Shown here piece after piece: positions 1 through 62,687 of a DNA stretch of 64,000 bases. The DNA is from Aphrocallistes beatrix (lineage: Eukaryota > Porifera > Hexactinellida > Sceptrulophora > Aphrocallistidae). Location of the stretch: NCBI GenBank assembly GCA_963281255.1, contig OY725501.1:3945674-4009673 (forward strand). The letters are read 5' to 3'. The translations under genes were made by a program, and so were the position numbers. Under the pieces are notes generated by a model. The model worked only from the letters and a program-made list of their open reading frames with translations, made no database searches and was not told the DNA's origin. Within the stretch, counting starts at the first letter, position 1. Each line of letters begins with the position of its first letter.

Positions 1-620
1 CAGTTCTGATTCTTGCAGGAATGTACTTCCATTCACGATACTACTCAGTAGCCCAGTGATCTTTTCAGCTGTCTCGCTACTGAATGCCCCGTTCGTCTTA
101 TTAATAATCAATTCTGCCGTTATTGAAGCTTCCACTAATATCACACTCTTATTTTCACTCGTGATTTCACCATCACTGTTAGCAGCATCAATGACAACCT
201 TAGCAAGATCTGCAGTTTGTCCAGATCTCTCATCAGAAATGGATTCTACACTATTCAACTCATCGCTGATTTCTTCTAAATTTTCCTGAATGTTTTCAAG
301 GGTTAATTCGAGTTCATAAGTGACAGATGCAACATCTCTTCCCGCTACATTCTCTGCAACGCAATAGAATATTTTCTCTCCATCGTTTGCTAGATCTGTG
401 ATGTTGACTTGAAGTATTGGTGAATCGATGAATTTCGAAATGAAATCTCTTGTCCAGTATATGTCTGGTAGCGGTACTCCAGTAGCAACGCATTCAATAC
501 TGCCAATAGCAACGCCAGTTCCATTTAATATTATCGTTAAGTCTGTGTCTGGGAATGTGATCTGGGGAGCTACGTTCGTGATAGTTGTTGTTGTACTGGG
601 ATGTGTTGTTTCATATGATC
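1..620 (-). CDS. R1 exon: I-set-like Ig domain followed by helical, GAIN-like segment
   Basis: The exon begins after a TTTATTTCTAG acceptor and stays open for 206 codons to the window edge. A Thr-rich linker leads into an Ig domain with the first cysteine in SIECVATG, the tryptophan in DIYWTRD and the second cysteine in IFYCVAENVAG, an I-set pattern unlike the A, B and V modules. About 100 residues of helix-prone, acidic sequence follow (ENIQENLEEISDEL, then LAKVVIDAANS and ITGLLSSIVNGS). Such a run after Ig domains resembles the first GAIN subdomain of adhesion GPCRs. No GPS cleavage site or seven-span region is visible because the window ends. The exon is phase 1, compatible with the B exon at 899-1177. 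It could instead begin an independent gene, but no start codon or signal peptide is seen. Confidence 0.6.
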
Positions 621-3600
621 CTAGAAATAAATGAAATTGGGAACGAAATTGGGAAAGAATCAGAAACTAGACAATAAAAAGTTTTTAAAAGGAGTGAAAA
701 TTCATGATGCAAATGACAATAGTCATTAGGCCTATCAGTGACCCCTTTCTCTAAAATATTAACATCTTGTGGCCAAATTTCATCTAACAACAAATTGGGC
801 GCTTTATTATAGTAAAGTAAATTTAATATCGATATTCAGGATCAACTACAAGATCAACCTGAATTCTAATTGCGTCATAAGAAGTCAACTGTACTTACCT
901 AGTATTGCTGAGATATTCAATTGAATAGCTAGTGTCTGTTCTCCATCCCAATTTTCAACATAGAACTTATACACTCCTCCCTGAGAGACATAGAAAGTTG
1001 AGAAGGTAAGAGTGTTGGATGCTACAGAACTGTTATCAGGTCTCTGCCATCTCCCAGCTAGATTAGTACTCAGAACTACATTCTGTGTCCGTACAGTGAC
1101 AGAAGCTGAGTTCATGTCAGGAGGGAGGAGAGAATAGTTCCTTGAAATTACATTTTCGAATTGGATAATTGGAGGACCTTGAAATTAAAGTTTCATTAAA
1201 TCTCTGCCTAAAATATATTTTTTGAATTAATACCAAATTGAATTTATTCTCCATTTTGCTATAACATACACAATGTATGTTTATTTCAGTACGCAATTCA
1301 TCTACTATAGCAGCAAAAAATATTCTGGTCAAATCTTACAAAGAAGACTCTGTATTCTACTAACAAGAAATGTTTCCAACTTACAAGAGCTTACCTTGTA
1401 CACTATATTGAGTACAGAGTATGATGGAGTTAGTTCTGATATCGACACACTGAATGTTATAGCTGGTACCACTCTGTAACAACATATTGCTGTGTGGGAT
1501 TAGTGGGTTTGGGAATGTCCTATCATTTCCTGTCACTCTCCACTTTATGTCAGTTAATGAGATGGAACTGTTGGAACTGTTGCAGAATAGAAATATCTCC
1601 TCTCTGTCTATTCCAATGGTGTAGGTGCGATTTATTACATCCTCAATAGTACTGAAGACTAGAAAAAGTACAAATATGTAAAGAAGAACCTTCTCATTAG
1701 AATATACGGTATGTAATTGTTGCTTGATGGTAGACAGTCTTCTCAATAGAATGTGCCACTTGTCTCATTGGCTTGATTTTCTATCGATGCAAATACGAAC
1801 TCTTTAATTTGTTGGATGAAATTAAGCCTCAACTTACATGTGTAATTTGTAGTAATAAGGAGTCCGGTCGTTCTTGTTTCAGTTACACCATCACTTCTAC
1901 TAATCTGACATGAGTAGTAGCCTGGACTATCCGTGGTTATTGACAATACACTAAATCCTGTAATGACATTTGTGCTGGTGTTAAGAGTTGATGTGTCTCC
2001 TGTTAGATTGACATAGCTCCAATTGACTGGGATGTTGTTCTCTCCTAGACAGTATAGAGTTGTGTCTTGATTTAGGACTGTGTTTCCACCCACACTCTCT
2101 AACATTGCTGAATTCTGAGTTGAGTTTCTGAATATGGTGACTATAACAAGTATATATTACATATAACATGTCCATCAAAATGTACGTTTGACAATGCTGC
2201 AAAGTCTACATGATGAAAGATTTCATTGACAGATTAACTTACTTGATTTCCTTTTACAAATGTAGCAATTCGTTGTATTATCACAGTCATGACTACTCCA
2301 CACATGTTCTCCACCAGTCTTAGCTCTAGCACATGTATCCATACTGCTAGAGGCACTCAGTGAGATATTATTGAAGTTGAGTGCCTCCCCATCAACCCAA
2401 TAGTAATCTCCCCTGTCCATATTAGTCAACCCAATCCAGCAATCAACAGCTGCGTAAGGAGTGTTCAGATGTAAGAAGTTATTTTCCTGTTCAGAAGTGA
2501 TACTAGCTAGGTTTCCGCCCCAGCTGTGACAACTTGACTGCGCTACATTCCAAGTGAATTGATCATTTGACTCAAAGGTTCGATAGCAAAACCCATCATG
2601 ACTGAGATCGCAAGCCCTCTGGTTCACTAAAAGTTATTAAAAACATATATATATATATATATATATACAATTCTATCAGATACAATCAACTCCGCTTAAT
2701 CGGGGCAAGTCCCCAGGAACGGAATAGTTCCTACACATAGAATTTAATTGTAAATATCATCGGTTAATTGGGACATAACATCCGGGACTAAAGTGTCCCG
2801 ATTAAGTGGAGTCATCGTAGTAATTGTTAAGAAATCTATGTAAACTTACTTGTTTTTTTACAGAAGAAGCATGAGAGAGTTTCATTAACGGTATGAGGAT
2901 ACCAAATTAAAGATCTCATTCCATTATCTCTCAACGAGTAATACCTGTACCCTGATAGAGCTAGTAGATTGGCCAGTAGAGTATGAGTTTGCTCACTCCC
3001 AAAAATGTTACTAGTACTACCTGTGGCCCAGATAAACCCATAACTCCCTTCCCTCTCCACTATCTCCAGACCAATCCAACACTCCGCAGTATTATCCCTA
3101 GCAGACAGATTAAGGAGGAGCTGATCCTCTGCTACCGACTCGATCGTGACAAGACTGCCTCCCCATCCTATGCACTCCCTCAGTGCAGAGTTCCGTCCTA
3201 GGCTCTGAGTGAAGTAGCCGTACAGGAAACCGCCAGATTCAGTTTGACGTTTCAATCCTAATGAAAGAAGTACGTGATTAGTTAACTGTACAGAATGTGT
3301 TGTAATTCTTCCTCCAATCTTAGAATGGATTATTCTGAAAAATTGAGATAAATATTTAGATTAATGAGTTGAAGAGTAGTATACAGCTCCAAGAGTTTTA
3401 ACTGAAAATTCGTCACCGGAAAATCATATGAGACCTGCCTTTAACGAGCGAGATCACTGGCTCATACTATTCTTATGTTAAGGTTATATTATTAAACGCT
3501 TCTCATCACTCACCACCAAATCCTAATATTTCTGCTACATAAGTTGTATTTATTCCATTCCGAGTGACTTGACACGAATAAGTGCCTGGATTATCATTGG

Positions 3601-6245
3601 TTAATTCCAGATGGGACACTCCTGTAGTGTCATTAAGTGCACTAGGGGGAACAGAGATGATTCCATCTTGATCCACTCTACTCCAAGTAACCTGTGGAGT
3701 GTCCATATTCTCTGTGATGCAAAATAGAGTCGTGTCTTGTGAGATAATTGTAATTGTACCATTATTCAGTCCTTCAATTGTATAAGAGTTCGTTATTAAC
3801 CCAAATAATACAACTAAAAGAATACTCAAAATTAAGGATATTATTATACATATACATACTAGTGTTCAATTGATTTAGGATCTTGTGTAGGATGAATTAA
3901 ATAGATATTCTTTACTCAGATACATTTTGAATTGCACCCTTAGCAATGATATTTTGATCAGTTTCCCTGCCTGAAGAAAAAAATTCATATTTTCGGTCAT
4001 TTCGTGATATATAAATTGAGATAACTTCATGTATTTGTGTAGAAAATCTGATTAATTACCTTTGGTCATTCCAGGACCAGTGTTTCGTCGGCTAATACAT
4101 GTTATATGAATGATCACACGGATGCGGACAAATACGAAATAGATTTAGTGTCTATAGTAGACGCCCTTCGAACACCTCTACATAAACACCATTACATGAT
4201 GTCTCACACTAGAGGCTAAGTCGCCTGATTCAAACACGATTGTAGGAATAATTAATCAAAAGATAGTGGTTAGTTCAATCTTATTAAGAAAAAAGGAATA
4301 GTTATTTCTCTAATGTTAAATTACCGTTCAATGAACTGCAGTAAGAACAGTCGTATGGTTGAGTGCATGAAATGTCATTCCATCCACTTTCTTGGTTGGC
4401 GATTTCAACACAGTTTTCAAACTCATCACCTGTCGGTTCATTAGCATTCCAGTTAGTATAAGGAAAGACACTTCCATCACTCCATACATACCTTCTGTTT
4501 GTTTTAATATCATTAAGCCCAGTCCAACAATGAAAAGTTCCATTATTAATGGAATTCAGTAGAGTATTTTCGCTTGCATTAACTATGCTAGCTAGATCTC
4601 CTCCCCATGTCCGACAACTATCTCTAGCAGCATCCCAAAAAACCACTGTACTTGAAGTGAAGAAACTGAAGCACTTCCCATAGTTCGTGATGATATCACA
4701 GCCACTGCTAGGAACTATTAAAACAATTCAAGATACCATAATAGAACCTCAACATTCCAAGAGTTCTTAACCATCATTTTATTTTTTTCTGGTGGCTAAC
4801 AGTCACCAAATTCTAAATTGGTTTTATAAATAGACCAATACTCATAAAACTTGACAGCTTAGTTAGCAACCATGCTAAGGAATTTGGTGGCTTATCGCTA
4901 CATTTTGATGGTTATTGCCATGAAACCACCTGATTGTAGAGCACCCAGTTAAAGGAATATTTATAGTAAATTAAGTAAGAAAATGTTCATATTAGCAAGA
5001 TTCCGGATGCGTATTATTTGTTGCCTAGAGAATTTGTATATTTCCCGTATGGAACATTTATTAATATGCTGAGGATATACTCATTGTTAACCACAATATT
5101 TGATAATAATTTACCTGAATTAATTCTATATAATTAAGTTAAAGTCGTCCCTCACCTCCAAAGCCTATCATTTCTGCTATGTAAGTTACATTCTCTCCAT
5201 TCCGAGTGACTTGGCAAGAGTAAATGCCTGGATTCTCATTGGTTAACTCCAGAAAACTAACTCCAGTAGCACTCGTTGCACTAATGGGAAAGGATCTGAT
5301 TCCATCTAGATCTACATAACTCCAAGTAACCTGTGGAGTGTTCCTATTCTCTGTGACGCAGTATAGAGTTGTGTTTTGTGAGAGAATCGTGTCATTATTC
5401 AGCTCTTCAAAGGTAGAAGCGTTTAAAGCTCTCCCGAATAGGTTTGCTAAAATAAATTTCATAAATTAACTCTGATTATCCAGAATCATAGGAACACCTA
5501 TCAGTAAAATATAGATAGGATGCTTAAGGGTTCGAATAAACGGCCAAAAAATAGATTGGTCATACTTCCTTATAAATCAGAAACTATCATTATAATAGCA
5601 TTGACAATTTAATGAATTCGATTGTCCAGGCACAGAGAAATATTGCTGAGACCTAGGCCTAGCTGTGCCACTGGTTTCGCTATTTCCTGTTCACTCACCA
5701 TTTAGTAAACTGCAGTAATAACAGACGATATTATCATCATTGCAGCTTAGATCATTCCAGGTTGAAGTTAGATTTAGATTAACACAATCTGCATTCCCTG
5801 TTGAATTATTTGGTTGACCACTATTCCAGTTCCTATAAGAGCTGTTGCTGCCATCACTCCACACAAATGTTCCTTCTGTTCCAAAGTCATTAAGTCCAAT
5901 CCAACAATCTCCAGATTCACCAGTATTTCTAATGGAATCCACTGCTGCATTTTCACCAGCATTAGCTATGCTAGCTAGATCTCCTCCCCATGACTGACAA
6001 TTAACTCCAGCATCTGCCCAATTGATTCCAGAATTAGAGAAGTAACTGAAACACTTACTTTCATTCGTAATTAGATCGCATCCACTGCTAGGAACTAAAA
6101 ATGGAATAGTTAATTCATCATTACTTTACAACTATGTATACTAAACTATAGTAAAGTGTGTAGAACATGAAATATTGAATATACCTTGAGTGAATGCCGT
6201 AGTAGTTAGAGAAAATATTACTAATATATTCAATATCAGATCCAT
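1..6245 (-). CDS. Receptor R1: CTLD/Ig mosaic receptor, 3' part beyond the window; possible adhesion-GPCR type
   Basis: Cell-surface recognition protein. Exons on the minus strand: 6185-6245 signal peptide; 5699-6094 CTLD1; 5156-5446 Ig1; 4325-4714 CTLD2; 3514-3813 Ig2; 2850-3257 CTLD3; 2243-2626 CTLD4; 1838-2140 Ig3; 1395-1658 module A; 899-1177 module B; 1-620 open at the edge. All junctions are GT-AG and phase 1, and the joined frame is open for 1232 codons. CTLD1 and CTLD2 show the WGGDLASI, WIGLND or WTGLND and C-terminal CYYC/CSYC features; the sugar-site triplets read QPN and EPT. CTLD3 and CTLD4 lack such a triplet. The order CTLD-Ig-CTLD-Ig-CTLD-CTLD-Ig-A-B is the same as in R5 on the other strand, but here B is followed by the unique exon at 1-620 rather than a V exon. 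The exon model is strong; ligand and role are unknown. Confidence 0.82.
2682..2819. mobile_element. MITE in CTLD3-CTLD4 intron of R1
   Basis: Inverted ends of the ACTCCGCTTAATCGGG type, 138 bp, next to a (TA)n run. It is the longest of three copies at this intron position in R1, R2 and R5. Confidence 0.75.
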
Positions 6246-6279
6246 CCTTTATTTTATGATCGGCATAAGCTACAATTGT

Positions 6280-8698: not shown

Positions 8699-9462
8699 CT
8701 AGCTAGAGTTGGTATTGTAATACGTACTCTCACTCGCAACATAAGAAACTTGCGCCTCAACTAAGCTTTTCTTGGGAGCAGCTTTCATCTCCATGTAGTA
8801 CGTAGAGTTAGGATTAATGGATTCCTCCTCATTCATTTTCAGATCGTATAGAGGATTAATAAAGAATTGACTGAATTCGAGTTCATCATTTTCAATATAT
8901 GCAAAATTTTCACTATTTGTAGGATTAACATATGCTTGCAAGGACTGCAGGTTATTCTCATGCTTGAGTTTATCGCCTCGCTTATTACAATTCCTACAGA
9001 GGCAAAATACGATGAAAGTGAGAATGACGAATAGAGCGAAGAGGAGGATGTATACTATCGATACAACTCCCACTGTGTAGCTTATTTCAGGAGTAAACTG
9101 GAAGTTTGAGGATATAGGTAGGTTGGTTGAAGTAGAAATGGTTTCTGTTGTCATTGGAGATGGATCCTTAGGTATTGAGATTAGATGAAAGGTTTGAAGA
9201 GAAAATGTTTGCTTCAGTAAAAACATAACATTCAATTCTATTCTGATTCTATATTCCACATTTGATAGAAGTTTAGTGATGTTGTACTTTAAAGAACTTG
9301 TGGTCCCAGCCAATACTTCTGCACCTCCAGTGGTACTGTAGTACACTGAGAATGTCTCGTTGGAGTTTACTGTTTGGTTATAGAGCAGAATCCAGCTGAC
9401 GAGTATTGAAGTAGGACTAGATGTCTCTATCCTTATGCTGGTAATTCTTTGATCAAATATGC
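8699..9462 (-). CDS. R2 terminal exon: FN3, membrane span, cytoplasmic tail
   Basis: One 764-nt exon encodes an FN3 domain (SILVSW strand, later YNITKLLSNVEYRIRIEL), a Ser/Thr/Pro stalk, a hydrophobic span beginning near YTVGVVSIVYILLFALF and ending in a cysteine cluster, and about 95 cytoplasmic residues. The tail has INPLY (NPxY type), AYVNP (YxN type) and YYMEM (YxxM type). The ITIM-like SVYATI of the R3 tail is altered here to FAYIEN. Such short motifs can bind PTB or SH2 adaptors in animals, but binding is inferred. The exon is shared in layout with R4 but not with R5. Confidence 0.82.
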
Positions 9463-10449: not shown

Positions 10450-10516
<67 letters not shown>

Positions 10517-28067: not shown

Positions 28068-28684
28068 TATTTCGATTGTCGCGGCGTAGAAAAATTGCCT
28101 AATCTTGGCCCTAGCTACGTTACTGGTTTTGCTATTTTCCTGTTCACTCACCATTTAATAAACTGCAATAATAACAAGCTACAGGTTGAGAGCAAGGTAG
28201 ATCATTCCAGGTAATTGGTTGTGAATGAGCGCAGTCTTCATCTCCTGCATTATTTGGTTCACCACTAATCCAGTTCCTATAAGAGCTGTTGCTGCCATCA
28301 CTCCACACAAATGTTCCTTCTGTTCCAATGTCATTAAGTCCAACAACCTTCAGGTTCACCAGTATTTCTAATAGAATCCACTGCTGCATTTTCACCAGCA
28401 TTAGCTATGCTAGCTAGATCTCCTCCCCATGACTGACAATTAACTCTAGCATCTGCCCAACTGATTCCAGAATTAGAGAAGTAACTGAAACACTTATTTT
28501 CATTCGTAATTAGATCGCATCCACTGCTAGGAACTAAAAATAGAACAGTTCATTCATTATTACTTTACAACTATGTATACTAAACTATAGTAAAGTGTGT
28601 AGAACATGAAATATTGAATATACCTTGAGTGAATGCCGTAGTAGTTAGAGAAAATATTACTAATATATTCAATATCAGATCCAT

Positions 28685-30227: not shown

Positions 30228-33200
30228 CTATGAGAAAAATATTTGAAGTACTATTTGAATTCTTAGATTTCCTAAAAAAGTAAATCTGGAACAAATAAAT
30301 TGGATCATATATTAGATATGTGTATTAATATAATATAATATACATGTGACACTGCTTAATTGGGATACAGGATCCTGCCATTTTGTCTGATTAAGCGGGG
30401 TTCACAGTTAACTAATGAATTTTATCATATTTAGTCACAGACTACGAGAATTCAGAAGAACTCAATCAGGAAAATAAACGAGGATGTATAGCTTACTTGA
30501 AGAATTCGTTGGATCAAAAAATCCAACCGTATATATTCGACCATCCGCCTGACAAGAGTAGTAGCCTGGATTGTCAGTGGTTACAGCTAGAATGCTGATC
30601 CCAGTATTAGCATCAACTGTAGTGTTAAGAACTGTTCTGTTTCCAGCGAGATCTACATAGCTCCAAGGAAGGTTAGTCTCTGTGATGCAGTATAGAGTTG
30701 TGTCTTGAAATATAATCTGATTGTTCTGAAGTGGATTATATGCTGAGATAAAAGAATCTATCCCGAAAGGATTATTTACTAGAAAGAAAATAACATAATA
30801 AATAAACCATTTTGTAAATAATCTGCTGAACATTATAGATGATCTCGATTGTAAAGGATTGACCAATGAAATTTTTTTTACTAAAAGCTGTTGATTTAGA
30901 CTCGTAGATAGATAGTCATGTAGGATATTATTGGGAACTTACTGTTCGGAATAAGATTTATCTGAATAGCTAGTGTCTGTTGTCCATCCCAATTGTCAAC
31001 ATAGAACTTATACACTCCTCCCTGAGTGACATAGAAAGTTGAGAAGGTGAGAGTGTTGGATGCTACAGAGCTGTTATCAGGTCTCTGCCATCTCCCAGCT
31101 AGATTAGTACTCAGAACTACATTCTGTGTCAGGACAGTGACAGAAGCTGAGTTCATGTTAGGAGGTAGGAGAGAAAATGATTGGATGGATCCATTGTTCA
31201 GTGTTATTATGGGAGGACCTTGGAATAATCGTGAAAATTATAAAATACACATATGGAGATCTAGCAAACCAAATAAATAAATAATAAATGTATTTCAGAG
31301 AATAATTTACCTTGAATTTCTATTTCTATGTGTGAAATCAAGTTTCCAGTATCTGTATCGATACACTGCAACTCTTGACTGTTACCTAAACTGAGCAGCT
31401 CATTACTAATATTGAGTGGATTTGAGTATAGAATTTCTGGGTTCATTCTTTCCCATCTGAAAGTTGGAAGTGAGTAAGATCCAATCTGACAGAGAAGTTG
31501 AATATCTATTCTGTCTATTCCCACTGTGTAAGTATAGGAATTCACTGTATTGAAAGAAATAATCAATATTGTTCAAATTCACAACCAATGGGCATCTTAT
31601 TTTTAAGGTAATAAATATCTAAATAGATGCACAAAATGAATAAAGTACTTCAAAATATATATATATTAGTATAATACCTGTCAACGACAGAGGGTCTTGT
31701 ATCAGAATATCATAGATCCTACTGACTCCATTATCTCGAGTGACTTCACACGAGTATAAGCCTGGAATATCAGTAGTCACAGAGAGAACACTAACTCCTG
31801 TAGTGGCATCAGTGGTGCTACTGAGAATGGCTGCACTCCCATCTCGACCATAAATCCAATTCACTTGTGGAGTGATCTTGTTCTCTGTGATGCAATAGAG
31901 AGTTGTGTCTTCAGAGAGAAGTGTGTTATTACTCAGTTCATCTAATGTATTAGCATTCTGTATTCTCCCAAATAGCGTTACTGTCATAAAACACCAAAGT
32001 TTAAATTAAGAACATTGCGCACTTAACTATAGTATTTTCTCACCATTTTGGGAACTACAGTAATAGCATCTTAAGCTAGAACTGCAGTCTTCATCATTCC
32101 AATCGAGATTTTCTCTAAAGTCGTTTTCGACGCAATCTTCAGAAAAGAAAAAATTATTCGGTTCACCCGGATACCAGTTCCTATAGGAGCTTGTGCTGCC
32201 ATCACTCCACACAAAAATTCCTTCCGAATCCATGTCGTTAAGTCCGATCCAGCATTCAGACTCTGTTGGATCTCTGATGGAACCTAGAGCTTCATTTTCA
32301 CTTTCAGAATCTATGCTCGCTAGATCTCCTCCCCAAGTCTGGCAACTAGCTCTAGAATCTGGCCAATCGATTCCTGAGTTGAGGAAGTAACTGAAGCATT
32401 TCCCCTCATTTGTAATCAGATCACAGCCACTGCTTGGAGCTATAAATAGTAACAAATAATACTATCTTATCTTATATATTAAAACGACAAATTGATCTCC
32501 TTTGTCCTAAATAGGGATTTTTTGAAATTTTCCAATCCTTTGTTTGACATGATTTAACCTTATAAGGAATGCTAAAGCTGAATAGGGGCATAATACAAGT
32601 GTGGCATAGGGAGAAGGGGATGTTGATTTTAGGATTTCTGTGTTATACAACGTTTGAAAGGTCCTCATAGGTGTATTTGCCTCACTTTCTTTTCTGGTCA
32701 TATTACAGCAAATAATAAATATGCATTATACAAAGTCTAGCCTAGTACAATTGATATCTACCTGTTAGTGAAGGCTTGAACAGTCTCAGACTATAAATCC
32801 TGCTGACTCCATTATCTCGAGTGACTTCACACGAGTAGTAGCCTGGATTATCAGTGGTTACAGTCAGAGCACTAACTCCTGTAGTGACATTAGTTGAGCG
32901 GCTGAGAACTGATCTGCTTCCATCTAGATCTACATAACTCCAATTCACTTGTGGAGTGTTCTTGTTCTCAGTGATGCAATACAGAGTTGTATTTTCGAAG
33001 AGAACTGTGTTATTACTCAATCCCGTATATGTAGTAGAACCTTGTATTCTCCCGAAAAATGTCACTAATTATAATGGAAATTATATTATATAAATTGTAC
33101 TTAATTCAGAATAACATCATTGGGCATCGCTTACCATTTTGAGAGCAGTAGTAACAAGCTCTCTCTGTCGAACAGTTCTCATTATTCCAATTAAGATCTA

Positions 33201-33891
33201 TCTTAAAGTCGGTTTCAACGCAATCTTCCGTACCAAAGAGAGAATTTGGTTCACCAGGCAACCAGTTCGCATAGGAGGAATTCGCTACATATGTGCTCTC
33301 ATCAGTCCATACAAGTACGCCCTCTGTTTCCCTGTCGTTGAGTCCGATCCAGCAGGAAGAGATTTCACTTGCATTCCTGATGTAGTTTAATGCCAGATCT
33401 TCACTGATGGAATTAATGCTAGCTAGGTACCCTCCCCATGCCTGACAATTAGCTCTAGAATCAGTCCAGTTGATCGCAGGATGGAAGAAGTAACTGAAAC
33501 ACTTCCCTCCACTTGTAATCAGATCACACCCACTGGTTGGAGCTAGAAATATGGTGTACTAGTAAACACAGCTGTTGTTTGTTTGTTTGTTTGTTTGTTT
33601 GTTTGTTGGTATGTTCATAATTTATTGAAAAACATCTCACATCGTAAAAGCTAAAATATTATATAATATAAACACAATGTGCAACAATATTCTATTGAAA
33701 AAAATAATATCTACTCCAACAATTTTTTTAAAGTGAAAACTATGATATAACTACTAACTGAATAAAACAATCTCCTTCAATTTTCCCTAAAGCAATAGTA
33801 GTAGGTGTTAAACTAAACATCATCAGCTACCTTGAGTTATTGCTGTAGCAACCATTGAGAATAATACTATTATGTTAAATATTTGCATCAT
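29533..33891 (-). CDS. Receptor R4: CTLD-Ig-CTLD-Ig-A-B-V-FN3 receptor, about 985 aa
   Basis: Exons (minus): 33831-33891 signal peptide; 33135-33542 CTLD1; 32762-33064 Ig1; 32044-32439 CTLD2; 31678-31980 Ig2; 31311-31544 A; 30943-31218 B; 30497-30778 V; 29533-30227 terminal. They sum to 2958 nt with no stop, all phase 1. It is the simplest member: two CTLD-Ig pairs and one A-B-V cassette, and its sequence is the most diverged. Both CTLDs have EPN, the triplet that in classic C-type lectins goes with mannose-type sugars, followed by EDC and a WNN or WND calcium motif, so it is the best candidate for an active lectin. The A exon is shorter (234 nt) and lacks the NSSNSSIS stretch. It may represent the ancestral form from which the long paralogs grew; this is inference. 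Confidence 0.85.
33573..33606. repeat. (TGTT)n tetranucleotide repeat
   Basis: About eight GTTT units in the first intron of R4. Confidence 0.9.
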
Positions 33892-34948: not shown

Positions 34949-37900
34949 ATGGAGTTCTGTAAGTTTATATTTGTGATAGTTTTAGTGATACAATCTCTAC
35001 AATATGCAATTTCTCAAGGTAAGGAGATATACACATTGAGTTGTTTAATAAAAATATACTTATAGAACTCAGGTAGTAATACTTACTCAACTTTCTCCAA
35101 TATTCTTCTTCTTTTAGTTCCTAGCAGTGGATGCGATCTGATTACGAATGAAAACAAATGTTTCAGTTACTTCTCTAATTCTGGAATCAATTGGACTGAT
35201 GCAAGAGCTAATTGTCAGTCTTGGGGAGGAGATCTAGCTAGCATAGCTAATGCTGGTGAAAATGCAGCAGTGGATTCCATTAGAAATTCTGGTGAATCTG
35301 GATTTTGTTGGATTGGACTTAATGATATTGGAACAGAAGGAGTATATGTGTGGAGTGATGGCAGTAACAGCTCTTATAGGAACTGGAATAGTAGTCAACC
35401 AGATAATCACGAGAATGAAGATTGTGTTAATCTAAATCCAATTACCTGGAATGACCTAAGCTGCTCTCTTAATACTATCAGTTGTTATTATTGCAGTTTA
35501 CTAAGTGGTGAGTGAACAGAAAATAGCGAAACCAGTGGCATAGCTAAGCTTAGGTCTCAGCAATATTTCTCTGTGCCTAGACAATCGAATTCATTAATAT
35601 TGTCAATGCTATTAGAATGACAGTTTTTGACTTATAAGCGTTGTACATGTAATCAATCTATTTTCGACCGTTTATTCGAACCCCCAAGCATCCTATCTAT
35701 ATTTTACTGATAGGTGTTCCGATGATTCTGGAATAATCATAGTTAATTTATAAAATTTCTTTTAGCAAACCTATTCGGGAGAACTGTAGACGCTTCTACC
35801 TTTGAAGAACTGAACAATAACACGATTCTCTCACAAAACACAACTCTATACTGTGTCACAGAGAATAGGAACACTCCACAGGTTACTTGGAGTTATGTAG
35901 ATCTAGATGGGATCAGATCCTTTCCCATTAGTGCAACGAGTGCTACTACTGGAGTTAGTTTTCTGGAGTTAACCAATGAGAATCCAGGCATTTACTCTTG
36001 CCAAGTCACTCGGAATGGAGAGAATGTAACTTACATAGCAGAAATGATAGGCTTTGGAGGTGAGGGACGACTTTAACTTAATTATATAGAATTAATCCAA
36101 GTAAATTATTATAAAATATCGTAGTTAACAATGGGTATATCACTCAGCTTATTAATAAATGTTCCATACGGGAAATATACAAATTCTCAAGGTAACAAAT
36201 AATATGCATCCGGAATCTTGCTAATATGAACATTTTCTTGCCTAATTTGATATAAATATTACTCTAACTGGGTGCTCTACAAGCAGGTGGTTTGATGGCG
36301 ATGACCATTGAAATATAGCGATAAGCCACTAAATACTTTAGCATGGTGGCTAACTAAGCCGTCAAGTTTTATGAAGTATTGGTCTATTTATAGAACCTAT
36401 TTAGAATTTGGTGACTGTTAGCCACCAGAAAAAATAAAATGATGGTTAAGAACTCTTGGAATGTTGAGATTCTATTATGGTATCTTGAATTGTTTTAATA
36501 GTTCCTAGCAGTGGCTGTGATATCATCACGAACTATGGGAAGTGCTTCAGTTTCTTCACTTCAAGTACAGTGGTTTTTTGGAATACTGCTAGAGATAGTT
36601 GCCGGACATGGGGAGGAGATCTAGCTAGCATAATTTCTGCAAGCGAAAATGCTCTACTGAATTCAATTAATAATGCAACTTTTCATTGTTGGACTGGGCT
36701 TAATGATATTAAAACAAACAGAAGGTATGTATGGAGTGATGGCAGTGTCTTTTCTTGTACGAACTGGAATGATGGTGAACCGACAGGTGATAAGTTTGAA
36801 AACTGTGTTGAAATCGCCAACCAAGAAAGTAGATGGAATGACATTTCATGCACTCAATCATACAACTGTTATTACTGCAGTTCATTGAACGGTAATTTAA
36901 CATTAGAGAAATAACTATTCCTTTCTTCTTATTGAGATTGAACTAACCATTATCTTTTGATTAATTATTCCTACACGCGTGTTTGAATCAGGCGACCTAG
37001 CCTCTAGTGTGAGACATCATGTAATGGTGTTTATGTAGAGGTGCTCGAAGGTGGCTACTATAGACACTAAATCTATTTCGTGTTTGTCCGCATCCGTATG
37101 ATCATTCATATAACATGTATTAGCCGACGAAACACTGGTCCTGGAATGACCAAAGGTAATTAATCAGATTTTCTACACAAATACAAGAAGTTAACTCAAT
37201 TTGTATATCACGAAATTACCGAAAATATTAATTTTTTTCTTCAGGCAGGGAAACTGATCAAAATATCATTGCTAAGGGCGTAATTCAAAATGTATCTGAG
37301 TAAAGAATATCTATTTAATTCATCCTACACAAGATCCTAAATCAATTGAACACTAGTATGTATATGTATAATAATATCCTCAATTTTGAGTCTTCTTTAG
37401 TTGCATTGTTTGGGTTAATAACGAACTCCTATACAATTGAAGGACTGAATAATGGTACAATTACAATTATCTCACAAGACACGACTCTATTTTGCATCAC
37501 AGAGAATATGAATACTCCACGGGTTACTTGGAGTAGAGTGGATCAAGATGGAATCATCTCTGTTCCCCCTAGTGCACTTAATGACACTACAGGAGTGTCC
37601 CATCTGGAATTAACCAATGATAATCCAGGCACTTATTCGTGTCAAGTCACTCGGAATGGAACAAATACAACTTATGTAGCAGAAATATTAGGATTTGGTG
37701 GTGAGTGATGAAAGAGTTTAATAGTATAGCCTTAACATAAGAATAGTATGAGCCAGTGATCTCGCTCGTTAAAGGCAGGTCTCCTATGATTTTCCGGTGA
37801 CGAATTTTCAGTTTAAACTCTTGGAGTTGTATACTACTCTTCCACTCATTAATCTAAATATTTATCTCAATTTTTCAGAATAATTAATTCTAAGATTGGA

Positions 37901-40900
37901 GGAAGAATTACAACACATAATCTTAATCTCCTTTCCTGCACGGTTAACTAATTACGTACTTCTTTCATTAGGACTGAAACGTCAAACTGAATCTGGCGGT
38001 TTCCTGTACGGCTACTTCACTCAGAGCCTAGGACGGAACTCTGCACTGAGGGAGTGCATAGGATGGGGAGGCAGTCTTGTCACGATCGAGTCGGTAGCAG
38101 AGGACCAGCTCCTCCTTGGTCTGTCTGCTAGGGATAATACTGCGGAGTGTTGGATTGGTCTGGAGATAGTGGAGAGGGAAGGGAGTTATGGGTTTATCTG
38201 GGCCACAGGTAGCACCAGTAACATTTTTGGGAGTGAGCAAACTCTACTGGCCAATCTACTAGCTCTATCAGGCTACAGGTATTACTCGTTGAGAGATAAT
38301 GGAATGAGATCTTTAATTTGGCATCCTCATACTGTTAATGAAACTCTCTCATGCTTCTTCTGTAAAAAAACAAGTAAGTTTACATAGATTTCTTAACAAT
38401 TACTACAGATGACTCCACTTAATCGGGACACTTTAGTCCTGGATATTTTGTCCCGATTAAGCGGAGTTGATTGTATATGATAGAATTATGTATATATATA
38501 TATTTGTTTATAATAACCTTTAGTAAACCAGAGAGCTTGCGATCTCAGTAATGATGGGTTTTGCTATCGAACCTTTGAGTCAAATGATCAATTCACTTGG
38601 AATGTAGCTCAGTCAAGTTGTATCAGCTGGGGCGGAAATCTAGCTAGTATCACTTCTGAACAGGAAAATAACTTCTTACATCTCAACACTCCTTACGCTG
38701 CCATTGATTGCTGGATTGGGTTGACTAATATGGACAGGGGAGATTACTATTGGGTTGATGGGGAGGCACTCAACTTCAATATCTCACTGAGTGCCTCTAG
38801 CAGTATGGATACATGTGCTAGAGCTAAGACTGGTGGAGATAATGTGTGGAGCAGTCATGACTGTGATAATACAACCAATTGCTACATTTGTAAAAGGAAA
38901 TCAAGTAAGTTAACCTGTCAATGAAATCTTTCATCATGTAGACTTTGCAGCATTGTAGAAACGTACATTTTGATGGACATATTATATGTAATATATACTT
39001 GTTATAGTCACCATATTCAGAAACTCAACTCAGAATTCAGCAATGTTAGAGAGTGTGGGTGGAAACACAGTCCTAAATCAAGACACAACTCTATACTGTC
39101 TAGGAGAGAACAACATCCCAGTCAATTGGAGCTATGTCAATCTAACAGGAGACACATCAACTCTTAACACCAGCACAAATGTCACTACAGGATTTAGTAT
39201 ATTGTCAGTAACCACGGATAGTCCAGGCTACTACTCATGTCAGATTAGTAGAAGTGATGGTGTAACTGAAACAAGAACGATCGGACTCCTTATTACTACA
39301 AATTACACATGTAAGTTGAGGCTTAATATAAATATTTTCATCCAATAAATTAAAGAGTTCGTATGTACATCGGCAGAAAATCCAGCCAATGAGACAAGTG
39401 ACACATTCTATTGAGAAAAATGTCTGCCATCAAGCAACAATTACATACCGTATATTCTAATGAGAAGGTTCTTCTTTACATATTTGTACTTTTTCTAGTT
39501 TTTAGTACTCGTGAGAGTGCAGTAAATCGCACCTACACCATTGCAATAGACAGAAAGGAGATATTTCTATTCTGCAACAGTTCCATCTCATTAACTGGCA
39601 TAAAATGGAGAGTGACAGGAAATAATAGAACATTCCCAAACCCACTAATCCCACACACCAATATGTTGTTGCATAGTGGTACCAGCTATAACATTCAGTG
39701 TGTCGATATCAGAACTAACTCCATCATACTCAGTACTCAATACACTGTGCAAGGTAAGAACTCATAAATTCTTATCAATCATGTTTCAATCTAGTAACAA
39801 TGGAAAATATGACTGTGTTTCATTCTTGTAGGTTCTCCTTTGCTAACACTGAACAACGGATCTATCCAATCATTTTCGCTCCTACCTCCTAACATGAACT
39901 CAGCCTCCGTCACTGTCCTGACACAGAATGTAGTTCTGAATACTAATCTAGCTGGGAGATGGCAGAGACCTGATAACAGCTCGGTAGCATCCAACACTCT
40001 TACATTCTCAACTTTCTATGTCACTCAGGGAGGAGTGTACAAGTTCTATGTTGACAATTGGGATGGACAACAGACACTAGCTATTCAATTGAATATCATT
40101 GTCATAGGTATAATGTTTACAAAATACGTATGCATTATTTTTGAATTAATATAAATCCTACACATTTACTTTTCTTCTAGTTGATCGTGCTTTTGGGAGA
40201 CTCAGCAATACAATCTACACAGAACTTCCAACCAATCACATTCTCTCTCAGAACACAACTCTATACTGCATCACAGAGAACAGCACTCCTTGGAGTTATG
40301 TAGATCTAGCTGGAAACAGAACAGTTCTTAACACTACAGTTAATGGAGCCACTGGGATCAGTACTCTATCAGTAACCACAGATAATCCAGGCTACTACTC
40401 GTGTCTAGTTGTTCAGAGTAGAGGAGTTAATGGGACACATACCGTTGGCATTTTTGACACTTCAAGCCTTACATGTACGTGAGCTGAGGTTAGATATAGT
40501 TGGGAGTCCTTTGAATATACTGGACATTCTTATGTCTAGCATTGAAGCAGTGACGACATAGATTAGGTCCAAATTGTTCATGCAACGTTCGAACCATACA
40601 GTTCCATTGTTCATTCTAGAATTATGACTCTCGAAAGATACAATATTGCATCTGAAATAATCCATAGTTCCAGCAGTAGTGTAGTTATGTTGAGTATTTA
40701 CATGACTGTCCATGTATTCACAATTTTATTCTACTCTACAGTTATTTTTACAATGCACACAACAGTCATAATATTTGTATTAATTTCATTCTAGTATTTA
40801 TCACTAACGGTTATACAAGGAATCGTACCTACACCATTGACATAGACAGAGAGGAGATATTTCTATTCTGCAACAGTTCCAACAGTTCCATCTCATTAAC

Positions 40901-43900
40901 TGACATAAAGTGGAGAGTGACAGGAAATAATAGAACATTCCCAAACCCACTAATCCCACACAGCAATATGTTGCTACAGAGTGGTACCAGCTATAACATT
41001 CAATGTGTCGATATCAGAACTAATTCCATCATACTCAATACTCAATATAGTGTGCAAGGTAAGCTCTTGTAAGTTGGAAACATTTCTTGTTAGTAGAATG
41101 TAGAGTCTTCTTTGTAAGATTTGATCTGGATATTCTTGGCTGCTTTAGTAGATGAACTGCGTACTGAAATATACATACATTGTATATCTTATAGCAAGAT
41201 AGAGAATAAATTTTATTTAGTATTTGTTCAAAAATATATTTTCGGAAGATATTTAATAAAATTTCAATTTCAAGGTCCTCCGATTATCCAAATTGAGAAT
41301 GGAATTTCAGGGAACTTTTCTCTCCTACCTCCTAACCTGAACTCAGCCTCTGTCACTGTTCTGACACAGAATGTAGTTCTGAGTACTAATCTAGCTGGGA
41401 GATGGCAGAGACCTGATAACAGCTCTGTAGCATCCAACACTCTTACCTTCTCAACTTTCTATGTCACTCAGGGAGGATTGTACAAGTTTTATGTTGACAA
41501 TTGGGATGGACAACAAACACTAGCTATTCAATTGAATATTATTGTAATAGGTATGATATCTAGAAGATGTATTTACAATATTATTTTATAACTATAACTC
41601 TTTTCAATTAGTTGATCATGCTTTTGGGACACTTAACAGTACAGTCTACACGATGCTTTTGAACAATCAGATTCAATTCAGGAGCACAACTCTATACTGC
41701 ATCACAGAGACTAACCTTCCTTGGAGCTATGTAGATCTCGCTGGAAACAGGACAGTTCTCAACACTACAGTTGATGTCACTACGAGTATCAGCACTCTAT
41801 CAGTAACCACTGACAATCCAGGCTACTACTCTTGTCAGGCCATTATTGGTAGTGTCAGTGAGATATTCAACATTGGAATATTAGACTTAACTAACTATAC
41901 AGGTTTGTGTATTTCGTGTGACATTCACTATCTAATCATGATAATGTAGTTGAATGACTGTACTGCTAATTCTAGAGTTTAGTCCCAATAATAATGCTAT
42001 TGAGGCTACATACACAATTGGAATAGACAGAGAGGAGATATTTCTATTCTGTAACAGTTCCAACAGTTCCATCTCATTAACTGACATAAAGTGGAGAGTG
42101 ACAGGAAATAATAGAACATTCCCAAACCCACTAATCCCACACAGCAATATGTTGTTACAGAATGGTACCAGCTATAACATTCAGTGTGTCGATATCGGAA
42201 CTAACAGAAACATAAACCATATAAGATATACTGTACAAGGTAAACTATTTAAAAATCACACTTATCTACAAATACACCATTCAATAGATCAGCGCAAGGA
42301 TGCTGTAAGTAAACTGTTGAAATTGAATGGTCTAGTAAATTGTATTTGTCTCTATAGGTCCTCCAAGGGCTATACTAGAGAATGGACGCTTGAATACTAC
42401 TTCTCTCCTACCTCCTAACATGAATTCAGCTTATGTCACAGTTCTGACACAGAATGTAGTTCTGAGCACTAATCTAGCTGGGAGATGGCAGAGACCTGAT
42501 AACAGCTCGGTAGCATCCAACACTCTTACCTTCTCAACTTTCTATGTCACTCAGGGAGGAGTGTACAAGTTCTATGTTGACAATTGGGATGGACAAGAAG
42601 TGATCGCAATTCAAGTCTATTTCGTTTTAAGTAAGTCCCTGTATTCCTTTTTGCTATAATTCTTGAGGTCTACCATACTAATGGGTTTATTCTCTGTAGT
42701 GAATCGTGAGTTTGGAAGAATCGAGGCTACATCATTTACGGAATTCCCCAACAATCACATAATATCTCAAGACACGAATCTCTACTGTATCACATATAAC
42801 AACCATCCTTGGAGTAAGGTAGATTTAGCTGGAGTCACAACAGCACTCAATACTACAGTCAATGTCACCACAAGAATCAACTCTCTGCAAGTAACCACTG
42901 AAACTCCAGGATACTACTCGTGTCAAGTCGCTCTTGAAGGAATCACTGATACTTACAATGTTGGAATATTCAATTTTACGGATTATACAGGTAAGCTAGA
43001 ATTTATTTACTTTTTGTAGTGTAATGATGAAAATCGAATTGAATACCATACTTGCCAACTGTCCCGCTTTTTCGGACATGTGTTGAAAGTAATATCCCGC
43101 GAAAGCGTTTTTCAGAAAGTGAATTATCCCGCTCTTCAGTTTGTATGACTAATACATGTACACTATGTCCCACTTTTTTCCTTGCAGAAGTTGGCATATA
43201 TAGAATACTCATTAAATTATCTCTAGTACTCAACTCAGCTAATTTAAACTCGACTCTACGTCTCTACACTCTTAACATCGACAGAGAAGTATTCATCTTA
43301 TGTAACAGTTCCAACAGTTCCATCTCATTAACTGACATAAAGTGGAGAGTGACAGGAAATAACAGAACATTCCCAAACCCACTAATCCCACACAACAATA
43401 TGTTGATACAGAGTGGTACCAGCTATAACATTCAGTGTGTCGATATCAGAACGAACAGAAACATAAACTATATAAGATATGCTGTACAAGGTAAACTAAA
43501 CTTATCTGCACATACTCTATTTGGTATCAGTTATAGTAATACCAATATTGAGGTTTTAGAAGCTTTTGTATTATTTCAACCCATCTCTAGCCTTTTATAT
43601 GAGTTTGAGAGTAGACTGAATACAAATACTATAACCTATGTAAATACTCTTGCAGGTCCTCCTATAATAACACTGAACAATGGATCTAACCAATCATTTT
43701 CTCTGCTACCTCCTAACATAAACTCAGCTTCTGTCACAGTTCTGACACAGAATGTAGTTCTGAGTACTAATCTAGCTGGGAGATGGCAGAGACCTGATAA
43801 CAGCTCTGTAGAATCCAACACTCTTACCTTCTCAACTTTCTATGTCACTCAGGGAGGAGTGTACAAGTTCTATGTTGACAATTGGGATGGACAACAGACA

Positions 43901-45601
43901 CTAGCTATCCAATTGAATATCAATGTCACAGGTAAGTATCTTAGATGTATATTATTATCTTAAACTGTGTCAGTCTTCAAATTGTTGATTTTTCAATTAG
44001 TTGATCATCCTTATGGGAGATTTAATGGAATAAACTACACAATACTTCCAACCAATCACATTCTCTCACAGAACACAACTCTATACTGCATCACAGAGAC
44101 TAACCTTCCTTGGAGTTATGTAGATCTAGCTGGAAGCAGAACAGTTCTTAATACTACAGTTAATGCTGACACTGGGATCAGTACTCTAACTGTTACCACT
44201 GATAATCCAGGCTATTACTCATGTCTAGTTCCTCGAGGAGGAGTCAATGAAACGTATATCACTGGAGTGTTTGAATTCACTATTTTCTACACAAGTAAGC
44301 TACAGTAGTTAACAATCTCAGAGAATTTCGTGATATAATCCTAAATTTTAACCAATAGTATTCAAATCATTTTACATATTATCTCAGTCAGAACATTAGT
44401 TTTAGGAGAGCTAATTCGTAATTTTCTCTTGAGGAATAACCGCTGCTTCATTTATACTTCATTTCCATTTTAAAGTATTTTCTGTTTAGTTTTCAATACT
44501 AACGACAATAGAATACATCGCATATACACGATTGGGATAGACAGAGAGGAGATACTCCTATTCTGCAACAGTTCCAACAGTTCCATCTCATTAACTGACA
44601 TAAAGTGGAAAGTGACAGGAAATGATAGAACATTCCCAAACCCACTAATCCCACACAGCAATATGTTGTTACAGAGTGGTACCAGCTATAACATTCAGTG
44701 TGTCGATATCAGAACTAACTCCATCATACTCAGTACTCAGTATGCCGTACAAGGTAAGCCAATCATATATATCTCTGCATTAGATTCCAAATGACAAAAA
44801 TGGAATGCAAAACGCTGCATTCTAACATTATTTGGTTGAAAGTAAACAATATGTCTCATAATAAGAGTGAATACAAATATTATACCCTATATAAATACTC
44901 TTTCAGGTCCTCCGATGATTACACTGAACAACGAATCCATCCAATCATTCTCTCTCCTACCTCCTAACATGAACTCAGCTTATGTCACAGTACTGACACA
45001 GAATGTAGTTCTGAGTACTAATCTAGCTGGGAGATGGCAGAGACCTGATAACAGCTCTGTAGCATCCAACACTCTTACCTTCCCAACTTTCTATGTCACT
45101 CAGGGAGGACTGTACAAGTTCTATGTTGACAATTGGGATGGACAACAGACACTAGCTATCCAATTGAATATTACAATAATAGGTATAATGGATGTCAGTA
45201 TTACAGCTTTTGATTTGACTCCTATGAAATAACCCATTGCCCACATCTCATAATATCAATTAGTTTCGGAATGTAATATATTCTAAACTTTTGATTTATG
45301 TTAATACCAATTTCACATTATTTTTTTCCTACTCTCTATAGAAATTCTCATAAATCAACTCACAACAACAAGCAATGGAGGAAACTTACAAATTATCTAT
45401 ATCCTCGTTCTCATCCCTATAATCATCATTACTGTCATCATCTGCCTAACACTATTACTCTTCTATGTTAAAAGCTCTGCGAGTTCCCAAGATGATCAAG
45501 CTGATAAAACGTTGATATCTATAACAAGATATGCCGAGACATCATTCACTGCTGAGAATCAAACTGTCGAAAAGTCCTCGACAGCTCATATTAAAAAGTA
45601 A
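34949..45601 (+). CDS. Receptor R5: complete CTLD/Ig mosaic receptor with four A-B-V cassettes, about 2215 aa
   Basis: 23 exons: 34949-35018 signal peptide; 35118-35507 CTLD1; 35766-36059 Ig1; 36502-36891 CTLD2; 37401-37700 Ig2; 37972-38373 CTLD3; 38524-38904 CTLD4; 39008-39310 Ig3; A 39499-39753, B 39832-40107, V 40181-40474; A 40795-41058, B 41275-41550, V 41612-41902; A 41976-42239, B 42358-42630, V 42700-42990; A 43227-43490, B 43656-43931, V 44001-44294; A 44490-44753, B 44907-45182; terminal 45342-45601. They sum to 6648 nt with no stop, every intron phase 1. CTLD1 has QPD, the galactose-type triplet, CTLD2 has EPT; CTLD3 and CTLD4 have none. The first half matches R1 in inverse orientation almost exactly, introns included; the cassettes match R2. 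The third A exon fixes the frame as in the others. It lacks FN3. Confidence 0.88.
38405..38475. mobile_element. Short MITE in CTLD3-CTLD4 intron of R5
   Basis: Ends ACTCCACTTAATCGGGAC and, inverted, ACTCCGCTTAATCGGGAC. The same element sits in the same intron in R1 (2682-2819) and, shorter, in R2 (about 17365-17430); a relative is in R4 (30344-30412). Confidence 0.75.
43047..43201. mobile_element. Small MITE with GTTGGCAAGTATG-type ends (copy in R5)
   Basis: Ends CCATACTTGCCAAC and GTTGGCATATA. It lies between V3 and A4 and carries a possible alternative acceptor (CCTTGCAG, 43187), which would lengthen exon A4 in frame by 39 nt; the CTCTAG acceptor at 43226 gives the family length and is preferred. 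Confidence 0.7.
45342..45601 (+). CDS. R5 terminal exon: membrane span and short tail
   Basis: Has no ATG and is therefore easy to miss. After the acceptor CTCTCTATAG it encodes a short Thr-rich stalk, a hydrophobic span (IIYILVLIPIIIITVIICL, about residues 2147-2172) and a tail of about 43 residues ending HIKK and a TAA at 45599-45601. The tail has one tyrosine (TRYAET) that fits no ITIM, NPxY or YxxM pattern, and the span has no charged residue. It is unrelated to the R2/R3/R4 terminal exon. Confidence 0.8.
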
Positions 45602-62659: not shown

Positions 62660-62687
62660 TGGACTAATGGATCAGTGTGTGTAGGAG

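What the first reader, a model, noticed from the sequence alone, without database searches (positions are those of the whole stretch)
1..45601. Inverted cluster of giant CTLD/Ig mosaic receptors built from one module set
Five paralogs fill 45 kb, four on one strand and one on the other. Together they hold 14 CTLD exons, 13 A, 15 B and 12 V modules. Proteins reach about 2000-2200 aa. I know no named family with the repeating A-B-V cassette joined to CTLD-Ig pairs. Copy-number change, a pseudogene, hybrid structure and near-identical segments are the marks of fast-evolving recognition loci (allorecognition or immune). Role is inference.
Basis: partly seen in the sequence, partly recalled or inferred. 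Interest (0 to 1): 0.92.

Follow-up and report, generated by a model that had tools for sequence, protein, structure and literature searches.

The report
Glass-sponge lectin/Ig adhesion-GPCR receptor cluster
A glass sponge carries a large cluster of cell-surface receptors whose sugar-binding-type and antibody-like outer parts are shared between seven-pass GPCRs and single-pass receptors, which looks like a rapidly changing recognition system in one of the oldest animal lineages.

Summary
The window holds five paralogs with 14 CTLD, 13 A, 15 B and 24 V-type exons, 12 of the V's in A-B-V cassettes. V is Ig by sequence; B models as an Ig fold; A is inconclusive. Gene 3 is a pseudogene. The window edge hides two things. 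(1) The cluster runs another 75 kb left (25 CTLD, 30 A, 34 B in about 121 kb). (2) Gene 1 splices on into Ig-GAIN-GPS-7TM: a 16-exon, 1,865-aa adhesion GPCR model. Two left-hand genes end the same way, one about 4,900 aa if single. Genes 2 and 4 end in FN3-TM-tyrosine tail, gene 5 in a short TM tail. Gene 1 (GPCR) and gene 5 (single-pass) are 93.6% identical over 3.4 kb, introns included. The same chain recurs on three other chromosomes. The mtDNA says glass sponge. CTLD-bearing adhesion GPCRs are known from placozoans; sponge versions with giant Ig arrays and front ends shared with single-pass receptors I did not find in print. Likely role: surface recognition (microbe or self) through a tethered-agonist GPCR. 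No transcripts or polymorphism data.

The parts
1..6245 (-). Gene 1, window part: signal-peptide-like exon, CTLD-V-CTLD-V-CTLD-CTLD-V-A-B-Ig/GAIN; continues left of the window (to -3980) into GAIN-GPS-7TM-tail
   Evidence: 16-exon chain, 1865 aa, GT-AG, no internal stop; Pfam Lectin_C x4, Ig, GPS, 7tm_2
6185..6245 (-). Gene 1 exon 1, signal-peptide-like; its coding DNA is identical to that of the gene 3 exon
1..620 (-). Gene 1 Ig/GAIN exon (runs to -14)
   Evidence: Ig_3 E 3.7e-05, below the curated cut-off; copies in the cluster, C1, C6, C19
8699..20610 (-). Gene 2: signal-peptide-like exon, 3 CTLD, A-B-V array, FN3-TM-tyrosine tail; 20 exons, 2078 aa
   Evidence: one A exon was read to a farther in-phase donor than its sister copies use, and one of four last-exon acceptors tried was chosen (another open one gives 2083 aa); a partial V remnant at 18143-18292 is skipped
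8699..9462 (-). Gene 2 last exon: FN3, TM, tail with NPLY and YMEM
   Evidence: fn3 E 2.1e-04, below cut-off; motif strings
22120..28684 (-). Gene 3: pseudogene of the gene 2 type
   Evidence: frame-breaking deletions in CTLD, one V and one A exon; CTLD lies in two frames; only the TM-tail part of the last exon matches gene 2
29533..33891 (-). Gene 4: signal-peptide-like exon, CTLD-V-CTLD-V-A-B-V-FN3-TM-tyrosine tail; 9 exons, 985 aa
   Evidence: fn3 at 24.9 against cut-off 25 bits
34949..45601 (+). Gene 5: signal-peptide-like exon, CTLD-V-CTLD-V-CTLD-CTLD-V-(A-B-V)x4-A-B-TM-short tail; 23 exons, 2215 aa
45342..45601 (+). Gene 5 last exon: TM and short tail without the tyrosine motifs sought
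36131..36190 (+). Small ATG exon-like element between V1 and CTLD2 of gene 5, also in gene 2 (19003-18944), with a partial match without the ATG in gene 1 (5073-5029); possible alternative first exon or remnant
39831..40097 (+). Example of module B (Ig-like, without the Cys pair); 15 in the window
40795..41058 (+). Example of module A (all-beta in a model, 2 Cys, Trp); 13 in the window
40181..40474 (+). Example of module V (Ig, C-W-YxC); 24 in the window

Best explanation
This is the right-hand 45 kb of a roughly 121-kb cluster of chimeric surface receptors in a glass sponge. One set of exons (CTLD, and three Ig-type modules V, A, B) is used as interchangeable outer parts in front of three membrane ends: (i) Ig-GAIN-GPS-7TM, an adhesion GPCR with a canonical HF|T cleavage site and a TSFAVFV tethered-agonist-like sequence; (ii) FN3-single TM-tyrosine-rich tail; (iii) single TM with a short tail. 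Shown from DNA: the exon chains and open frames, the GPCR end, near-identical front ends before different membrane ends, recurrence of the chain on other chromosomes, differing cassette number. Inferred: CTLDs bind glycans on foreign or neighbouring surfaces; pull or binding removes the cleaved outer fragment and exposes the tethered agonist to a G protein; single-pass paralogs with the same outer part see the same ligands and modulate the response through tyrosine motifs or as decoys; cassette number sets reach, and loop variation and front-end swapping diversify specificity, as expected for immune or self/non-self recognition.
For: Gene 1: 16 exons, 1,865 aa, no stop; Lectin_C 7.2e-51 (4 stretches), 7tm_2 2.4e-30, Ig_3 5.4e-15, GPS 22.3 bits against cut-off 22.5 (27.2 on the exon alone). 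Two more in the left flank: 1,265 aa (11 exons), and about 4,900 aa over 48 exons without the first. Same strand and order at C1, C6 and C19, the last without A and B. A pattern search for HF(T/S) GPS sites hit all 6 GPCRs of this family, three in the cluster and one each on C1, C6, C19, and not the distant C12 7TM locus. Front ends: gene 1 (7TM)/gene 5 (single TM) 93.6% over 3,367 bp; gene 1/gene 2 95.0% over 1,318 bp; signal-peptide exon of gene 1 identical to that of gene 3, a single-TM-type pseudogene. Type-1 CTLDs: binding-side segment dN 0.314 against 0.054 elsewhere; 3 of 132 block positions, the true one included, as extreme. 13 of 34 CTLD clusters have a 7tm_2 locus within 10 kb, rotation mean 1.3, maximum 6. 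In the sponge Aplysina an adhesion GPCR responded to microbial patterns (PMC6208332, passages).
Against: No transcript supports any chain; the 4,900-aa gene could be two. dN/dS in the loop is below 1 and dS is raised there too, so diversifying selection is not shown; relaxed constraint or exchange among copies would do. A second CTLD group gave no clear clustering (36 of 132). Only 3 of 14 window CTLDs have both [EQ]P[ND] and WND (my reading), so many may not bind sugar. No Pfam GAIN match on gene 1. Gene 5 has no tyrosine motif. The sampled cluster at C15:138-168 kb shows weak FN3-TM or TM matches and no 7TM hit. No polymorphism data.
Confidence: 0.6

Rival explanations
1. Ordinary tissue-adhesion and mechanosensing receptors: the outer arrays act as spacers that hold the syncytium, matrix or spicule surface, and repeat number drifts by unequal exchange without recognition of non-self.
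For: B is very homogeneous (89% mean column identity in 10 of the 15 window copies), as for a structural spacer; dN/dS is below 1 for nearly all module pairs; many CTLDs lack Ca-site motifs. A lectin described as a putative aggregation factor is known from the glass sponge Aphrocallistes (title of a reference cited in PMC4557014, passages seen).
Against: Variation is concentrated on the CTLD binding side in one of two groups tested; tandem and inverted duplication, a pseudogene and shared front ends are unusual for housekeeping adhesion genes.
Confidence: 0.25
2. The 7TM exons form separate adhesion GPCR genes that only lie beside CTLD/Ig single-pass genes.
For: Chains are inferred from DNA; no RNA. 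I made no search for a first exon between B and the Ig/GAIN exon.
Against: In-frame junctions and no stops in gene 1, delta and the giant gene; the same same-strand order at six loci on four chromosomes; the signal-peptide-like exons found for gene 1 and delta lie before the first CTLD.
Confidence: 0.06
3. The diversity comes from alternative splicing (Dscam-like) as much as from gene copies: symmetric phase-1 exons can be skipped or combined freely.
For: Module exons of the complete models are phase 1-1; exon-like ATG elements lie between V1 and CTLD2 in genes 2 and 5.
Against: No transcript data; phase-1 symmetry is also the plain signature of exon shuffling; no mutually exclusive exon sets or docking sites were looked for.
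Confidence: 0.15

Closest known systems
CTLD-bearing adhesion GPCRs of placozoans (28 of 36 CTLD receptors in Trichoplax sp. H2) and one in Branchiostoma (PMC6321704, section 8 read)
   Same: CTLDs on the outer part of a Secretin/Adhesion-family 7TM receptor, a multigene family, proposed role in recognition of molecular patterns
   Different: Per that section the placozoan outer domains consist of CTLDs; here CTLDs are joined to Ig-type V, A and B modules in arrays of up to 42 module exons, before an Ig-GAIN, and the same front ends also sit on single-pass receptors
Adhesion GPCRs of the demosponge Amphimedon (40 genes; PMC4302439, passages seen)
   Same: Ig, V-set and fn3 domains before GPS and 7TM in a sponge; SRCR repeats, which the authors link to immunity
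   Different: No occurrence of 'lectin', 'C-type' or 'CTLD' in its main text; no cassette arrays in the passages seen
Polycystin-1 (PMC9672506 and PMC11458180, abstract starts in the listing)
   Same: Very large outer part, GAIN domain, stalk tethered agonist; a CTLD (recalled)
   Different: 11 TM, PKD repeats (recalled); not a 7tm_2 receptor
Hydractinia allorecognition complex Alr (listing; domain details recalled)
   Same: Clustered Ig-type transmembrane genes with pseudogenes and tyrosine tails
   Different: No CTLD, no 7TM (recalled); polymorphism and function there are shown, here not tested
Vertebrate paired receptors (KIR, LILR, Ly49; recalled)
   Same: Near-identical outer parts on different signalling ends, clustered, with pseudogenes and conversion
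   Different: Vertebrate pairs are single-pass; here one partner is a GPCR
Molluscan CREPs/FREPs (recalled)
   Same: Ig plus C-type lectin (CREP) in one protein
   Different: Secreted, one or two Ig and one lectin or fibrinogen domain; no TM array

Membership tests
Adhesion GPCR (gene 1) | 7TM of the Secretin/Adhesion class | tested here: met
   7tm_2 E 2.4e-30, 106 bits against cut-off 20.6
Adhesion GPCR (gene 1) | GPS with HX(S/T) cleavage triad before TM1 | tested here: met
   GPS 27.2 bits on the exon (cut-off 22.5), 22.3 on the whole protein; HF|T in gene 1 and the other 5 family GPCRs
Adhesion GPCR (gene 1) | Full GAIN domain | tested here: inconclusive
   Region lies in place and is spliced in, but no Pfam GAIN match on gene 1 exons or protein; the neighbouring single-exon gene does match
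Adhesion GPCR (gene 1) | Autoproteolysis and G-protein coupling | not testable with these tools
   needs protein
C-type lectin-like domain | Lectin_C profile | tested here: met
   genome search, gene 1 E 7.2e-51, PDB profile matches; CTLD3 alone is just under cut-off, 21.6 against 22.6
Sugar-binding C-type lectin | [EQ]P[ND] and WND calcium-site motifs | tested here: inconclusive
   Both in 8 of 25 modelled CTLD exons of the cluster, 3 of 14 in the window (my reading; the script misreads some WND sites)
Immunoglobulin superfamily | V module matches Ig | tested here: met
   Ig_3 56.1 bits on gene 1, best stretch in V2, against cut-off 30; the single V exons tested are under cut-off
Immunoglobulin superfamily | B module has Ig fold | tested here: met
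Immunoglobulin superfamily | A module has Ig fold | tested here: inconclusive
Allorecognition or immune locus | Polymorphism between individuals; role in fusion, rejection or response to microbes | not testable with these tools
   one genome, no expression
ITIM/ITAM-type receptor | Functional tyrosine motifs | tested here: inconclusive
   ITIM-like strings in 3 of 5 single-pass tails, NPxY in 3 of 5 and in the GPCR tail; chance not excluded
Glass sponge origin | mtDNA: atp9 kept, genes on one strand, AGR not Arg, atp6-cox3-nad2-nad5-nad1 order, cox3 split in two frames | tested here: met
   (0 of 9 AGR at Arg sites; 4 Ser, 3 Gly, 1 Asn, 1 Ala), compared with PMC2267718 passages; genes other than cox1 recognised by eye

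The most novel reading that the evidence does not exclude
Glass sponges run a paired-receptor recognition system in which the same fast-changing lectin/Ig front ends are placed on a tethered-agonist GPCR and on a single-pass tyrosine-tail receptor, and are renewed by cassette-number change, front-end exchange and perhaps exon choice, giving individuals or cells their own repertoire for self/non-self or microbe recognition in a syncytial animal.
Probability: 0.3. Interest if true: 0.88.

Novelty: new variant of a known kind. Interest (0 to 1): 0.7.

Why it matters
The genes of sponge self/non-self recognition are largely open (recalled), and glass sponges are mostly syncytial (recalled). A clustered, chromosome-placed candidate family with intact models, a defined GPCR activation site and single-pass partners makes expression, polymorphism and ligand tests direct. 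With placozoan CTLD-GPCRs it also raises the question whether lectin adhesion GPCRs were an early animal recognition system or arose more than once.

Tried and rejected
Placozoan origin (100 Mb genome, CTLD-GPCRs known there): rejected on mtDNA (18 kb, atp9 present, AGR not Arg; placozoan mtDNA traits recalled). B as a new fold: not supported, Ig-like. Diversifying selection (dN/dS above 1): not shown. In one search I dropped one CTLD copy (-5965, end out of frame) that one search had included; with it, loop dN was 0.305 against 0.068 and 170 of 5000 random shifts were as extreme. The rotation control used chromosome lengths that I guessed, except C15; later gave C1 12.5, C6 5.6, C12 4.8 and C19 3.5 Mb, near the guesses. 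rests on the listed hits only (150 CTLD rows of 241 candidates; 134 7tm_2 rows of 150 candidates). sought phase-1 borders only. The gene 5 model and gene 1 model had wrong borders and stops; I then moved acceptors of gene 5, and added the first exon and moved one acceptor of gene 1, so borders were chosen with the frame in view; those of the last six gene 1 exons were picked by eye. Delta had one wrong donor, changed. For gene 2, four last-exon acceptors were tried. No model was built for epsilon, whose first CTLD ends out of frame. PADLOC on one B exon: nothing. No Foldseek run was accepted; only the VIA second look was seen.

No paper in the listings is, by title and abstract start, on CTLD/Ig adhesion GPCRs in a sponge; the library holds open-licence papers only and most listed papers were not opened. 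The main text of the Aphrocallistes genome paper has no occurrence of lectin, immunoglobulin or GPCR; the Oopsacas paper none of lectin, three of GPCR.
Full report
WHAT IS THERE. The window is C15:3945674-4009673 of a 100.5-Mb, 28-contig genome. Modules are single exons. A script that looked for phase-1 borders only found GT-AG borders for nearly all; the exceptions are truncated or damaged copies, such as several in gene 3 and the V remnant of gene 2. The complete chains below bear the phases out, since they stay open.

THE CLUSTER IS LARGER. The same modules continue to -75.2 kb: in about 121 kb there are 25 CTLD, 30 A and 34 B exons, partial copies included. Genome-wide, B gives 96 rows: 34 places and one fragment in this cluster at 82-100% identity, six near copies elsewhere (C1 two, C6 two, C12, C15:686 kb; 76-93%), and a diverged set mainly at C15:70-260 kb and 778-831 kb, with a few on C10 and C11. 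A gives 46 rows. CTLD gives 150 rows, 150 of 241 candidates having been scored.

THE MISSING HALF OF GENE 1. At the left edge gene 1 runs into an Ig/GAIN exon (620 to -14). The next exons are GAIN (two), GPS-TM1-3, TM4-7 and a tail. The 16-exon chain is open from a signal-peptide-like first exon (6245) to a stop (-3980): 1,865 aa. Pfam on the spliced protein: four Lectin_C stretches (7.2e-51), 7tm_2 (2.4e-30), Ig_3 (5.4e-15) and GPS (22.3 bits, just under its cut-off of 22.5; 27.2 on the exon alone). No Pfam GAIN match was seen on this gene. It is an adhesion GPCR by 7TM and GPS. Two more genes of the left flank have the same six terminal exons at 83-95% identity: delta (11 exons, 1,265 aa) and a giant gene (48 exons without the first, about 4,900 aa; 4 CTLD, 14 V, 12 A, 12 B), both without internal stops. 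Whether the giant is one gene needs RNA.

THE OTHER ENDS. Genes 2 and 4 end in a weak FN3 match, one TM and a tail with 8 and 6 tyrosines. Gene 3, the pseudogene, keeps the TM-tail part, and three more FN3-TM exons and some fragments lie to the left. Gene 5 ends in a TM and a 45-residue tail with two tyrosines and none of the motifs sought. ITIM-like strings occur in 3 of 5 single-pass tails examined and NPxY in 3 of 5 and in the GPCR tail. These are strings, not shown motifs.

INDEPENDENT COPIES. C1:11675784-11684686 has CTLD-V-A-B-Ig-GAIN-GPS-7TM-tail; C19:2669757-2675043 the same without A and B; C6:1218379-1235047 has B-V-A-B before Ig-GAIN-7TM and several CTLD and V exons upstream. At C12 the A, B, V and CTLD exons lie some 19 kb from a more distant 7TM, so no chain is claimed there. 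The order and strand recur, which argues that the chain is a gene and that A-B insertion and A-B-V multiplication came later (inference). A pattern search for HF(T/S) after a Cys hit the GPS of all six GPCRs of this family; five read TSFAVFV behind the site, C6 reads TSFTVFI; the C12 locus gave no hit. Across the genome 13 of 34 CTLD clusters have a 7tm_2 locus within 10 kb, against 1.3 on average (maximum 6) in 500 rotations (with partly guessed chromosome lengths).

SHARED FRONT ENDS. Gene 1 (7TM) and gene 5 (single TM) are 93.6% identical over 3,367 bp, introns included; further alignment reaches the end of A1, B1 aligns by itself, and no aligned block was listed after it. Gene 1 and gene 2 are 95.0% identical over 1,318 bp. 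The signal-peptide exon of gene 1 is identical to that of gene 3. Delta (7TM) and epsilon (FN3-TM by exon order; first CTLD damaged) are 97.2% identical over 1,257 bp just upstream of the first exon and 90.9% over 696 bp through it and the CTLD. So outer parts have recently moved between, or been duplicated with, different membrane ends (inference).

VARIATION. Pairwise dN/dS between genes 1, 2 and 5 is mostly 0.14-0.65. The exceptions are CTLD1 (0.49-0.94), CTLD2 (1.05), B3 (0.81) and one V3 pair without a synonymous change. Among six CTLD copies of the first type, the segment from the NW before the EPN site to the last cysteines has dN 0.314 and dS 0.363, the rest dN 0.054 and dS 0.136. Of 132 positions of a block of that size 3, the true one included, are as extreme for dN. 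dS is raised there too, which suggests exchange among copies and not selection alone. A second CTLD group showed no such clustering (36 of 132), but its loop was badly delimited (103 of 132 columns).

ORGANISM. The 18-kb mtDNA (C28) has atp9, one coding strand for the genes that I recognised by eye, and the order atp6-cox3-nad2-nad5-nad1; cox3 lies in two frames. In the 408 COX1 residues compared, 0 of 9 AGR codons stand at Arg, 4 at Ser, 3 at Gly; 5 of 7 CGN stand at Arg. These are traits given for glass sponges in PMC2267718 (passages). Species unknown; the published Aphrocallistes (80.3 Mb) and Oopsacas (61.5 Mb) assemblies differ in size (passages of PMC10282587).

RELATIVES. B finds 45 proteins in the protein database, without Pfam domains or names. 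Those on a 461-kb contig include exact matches to this cluster (by eye, P0004 and P0010); others on short contigs are 80-92% identical over the part aligned, one is 72%, and P0014 to P0044 are 52-67%. A finds 10. The Ig/GAIN exon finds 7, four of them at 57-63%. So the parts probably occur in other, unnamed assemblies; their linkage there could not be seen.

LITERATURE. CTLD-bearing adhesion GPCRs are published for placozoans, 28 of 36 CTLD receptors, and one in Branchiostoma (PMC6321704, section 8 read). Amphimedon adhesion GPCRs carry Ig and SRCR domains (PMC4302439, passages). A GPS-bearing adhesion GPCR of the sponge Aplysina rose after microbial patterns (PMC6208332, passages). Thus the kind is known; sponge CTLD-Ig arrays on GPCRs, with front ends shared with single-pass receptors, I did not find in print (searches named under Tried and rejected).

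MECHANISM. My commitment: CTLD-tipped, Ig-stalked receptors test surfaces; ligand plus pull frees the tethered agonist in the GPCR form; single-pass forms with the same tip tune or compete. Architecture about 0.93; recognition role about 0.6; allorecognition in particular about 0.3.

Noticed in passing
C15:3918267-3919034 (L018:1745-3721, +), left of the window: A separate single-exon adhesion GPCR (GAIN and 7tm_2, 659 aa) lies inside the cluster; five 7tm_2 genes in similar long frames (657-714 aa) lie on C6.
   Followed up: partly
window 52539-52976 (-): Fam20C-type Golgi kinase exon (E 9.7e-27); Fam20C kinases phosphorylate secreted proteins (recalled).
   Followed up: no
window 56754-59876 (+): 1041-aa open frame with an OTU protease match (E 3e-09) and no other useful match; possibly a mobile-element protein.
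   Followed up: no
window 62105-62671 and 63253-63846 (-): Two tandem paralogous small proteins, secreted by look; the one tested has a sub-threshold ATG27 match.
   Followed up: no
window 60055-61517: About 1.3 kb matches itself at an offset of 185 bp at 97%: a tandem array.
   Followed up: no
mtDNA C28 (L010, about 8806-9590): cox3 lies in two frames, as reported for the +1 frameshift of Aphrocallistes cox3.
   Followed up: partly
C15:138001-168000 (L030-L032): Diverged arrays of CTLD, V, A and B with weak FN3-TM or TM matches and no 7TM seen: perhaps an older version of the system at the other chromosome end.
   Followed up: partly
window 36131-36190 (+), 19003-18944 (-), 5073-5029 (-): Signal-peptide-like ATG mini-exons between V1 and CTLD2 in genes 5 and 2, partly kept in gene 1: alternative starts or remnants.
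   Followed up: partly
   Followed up: no
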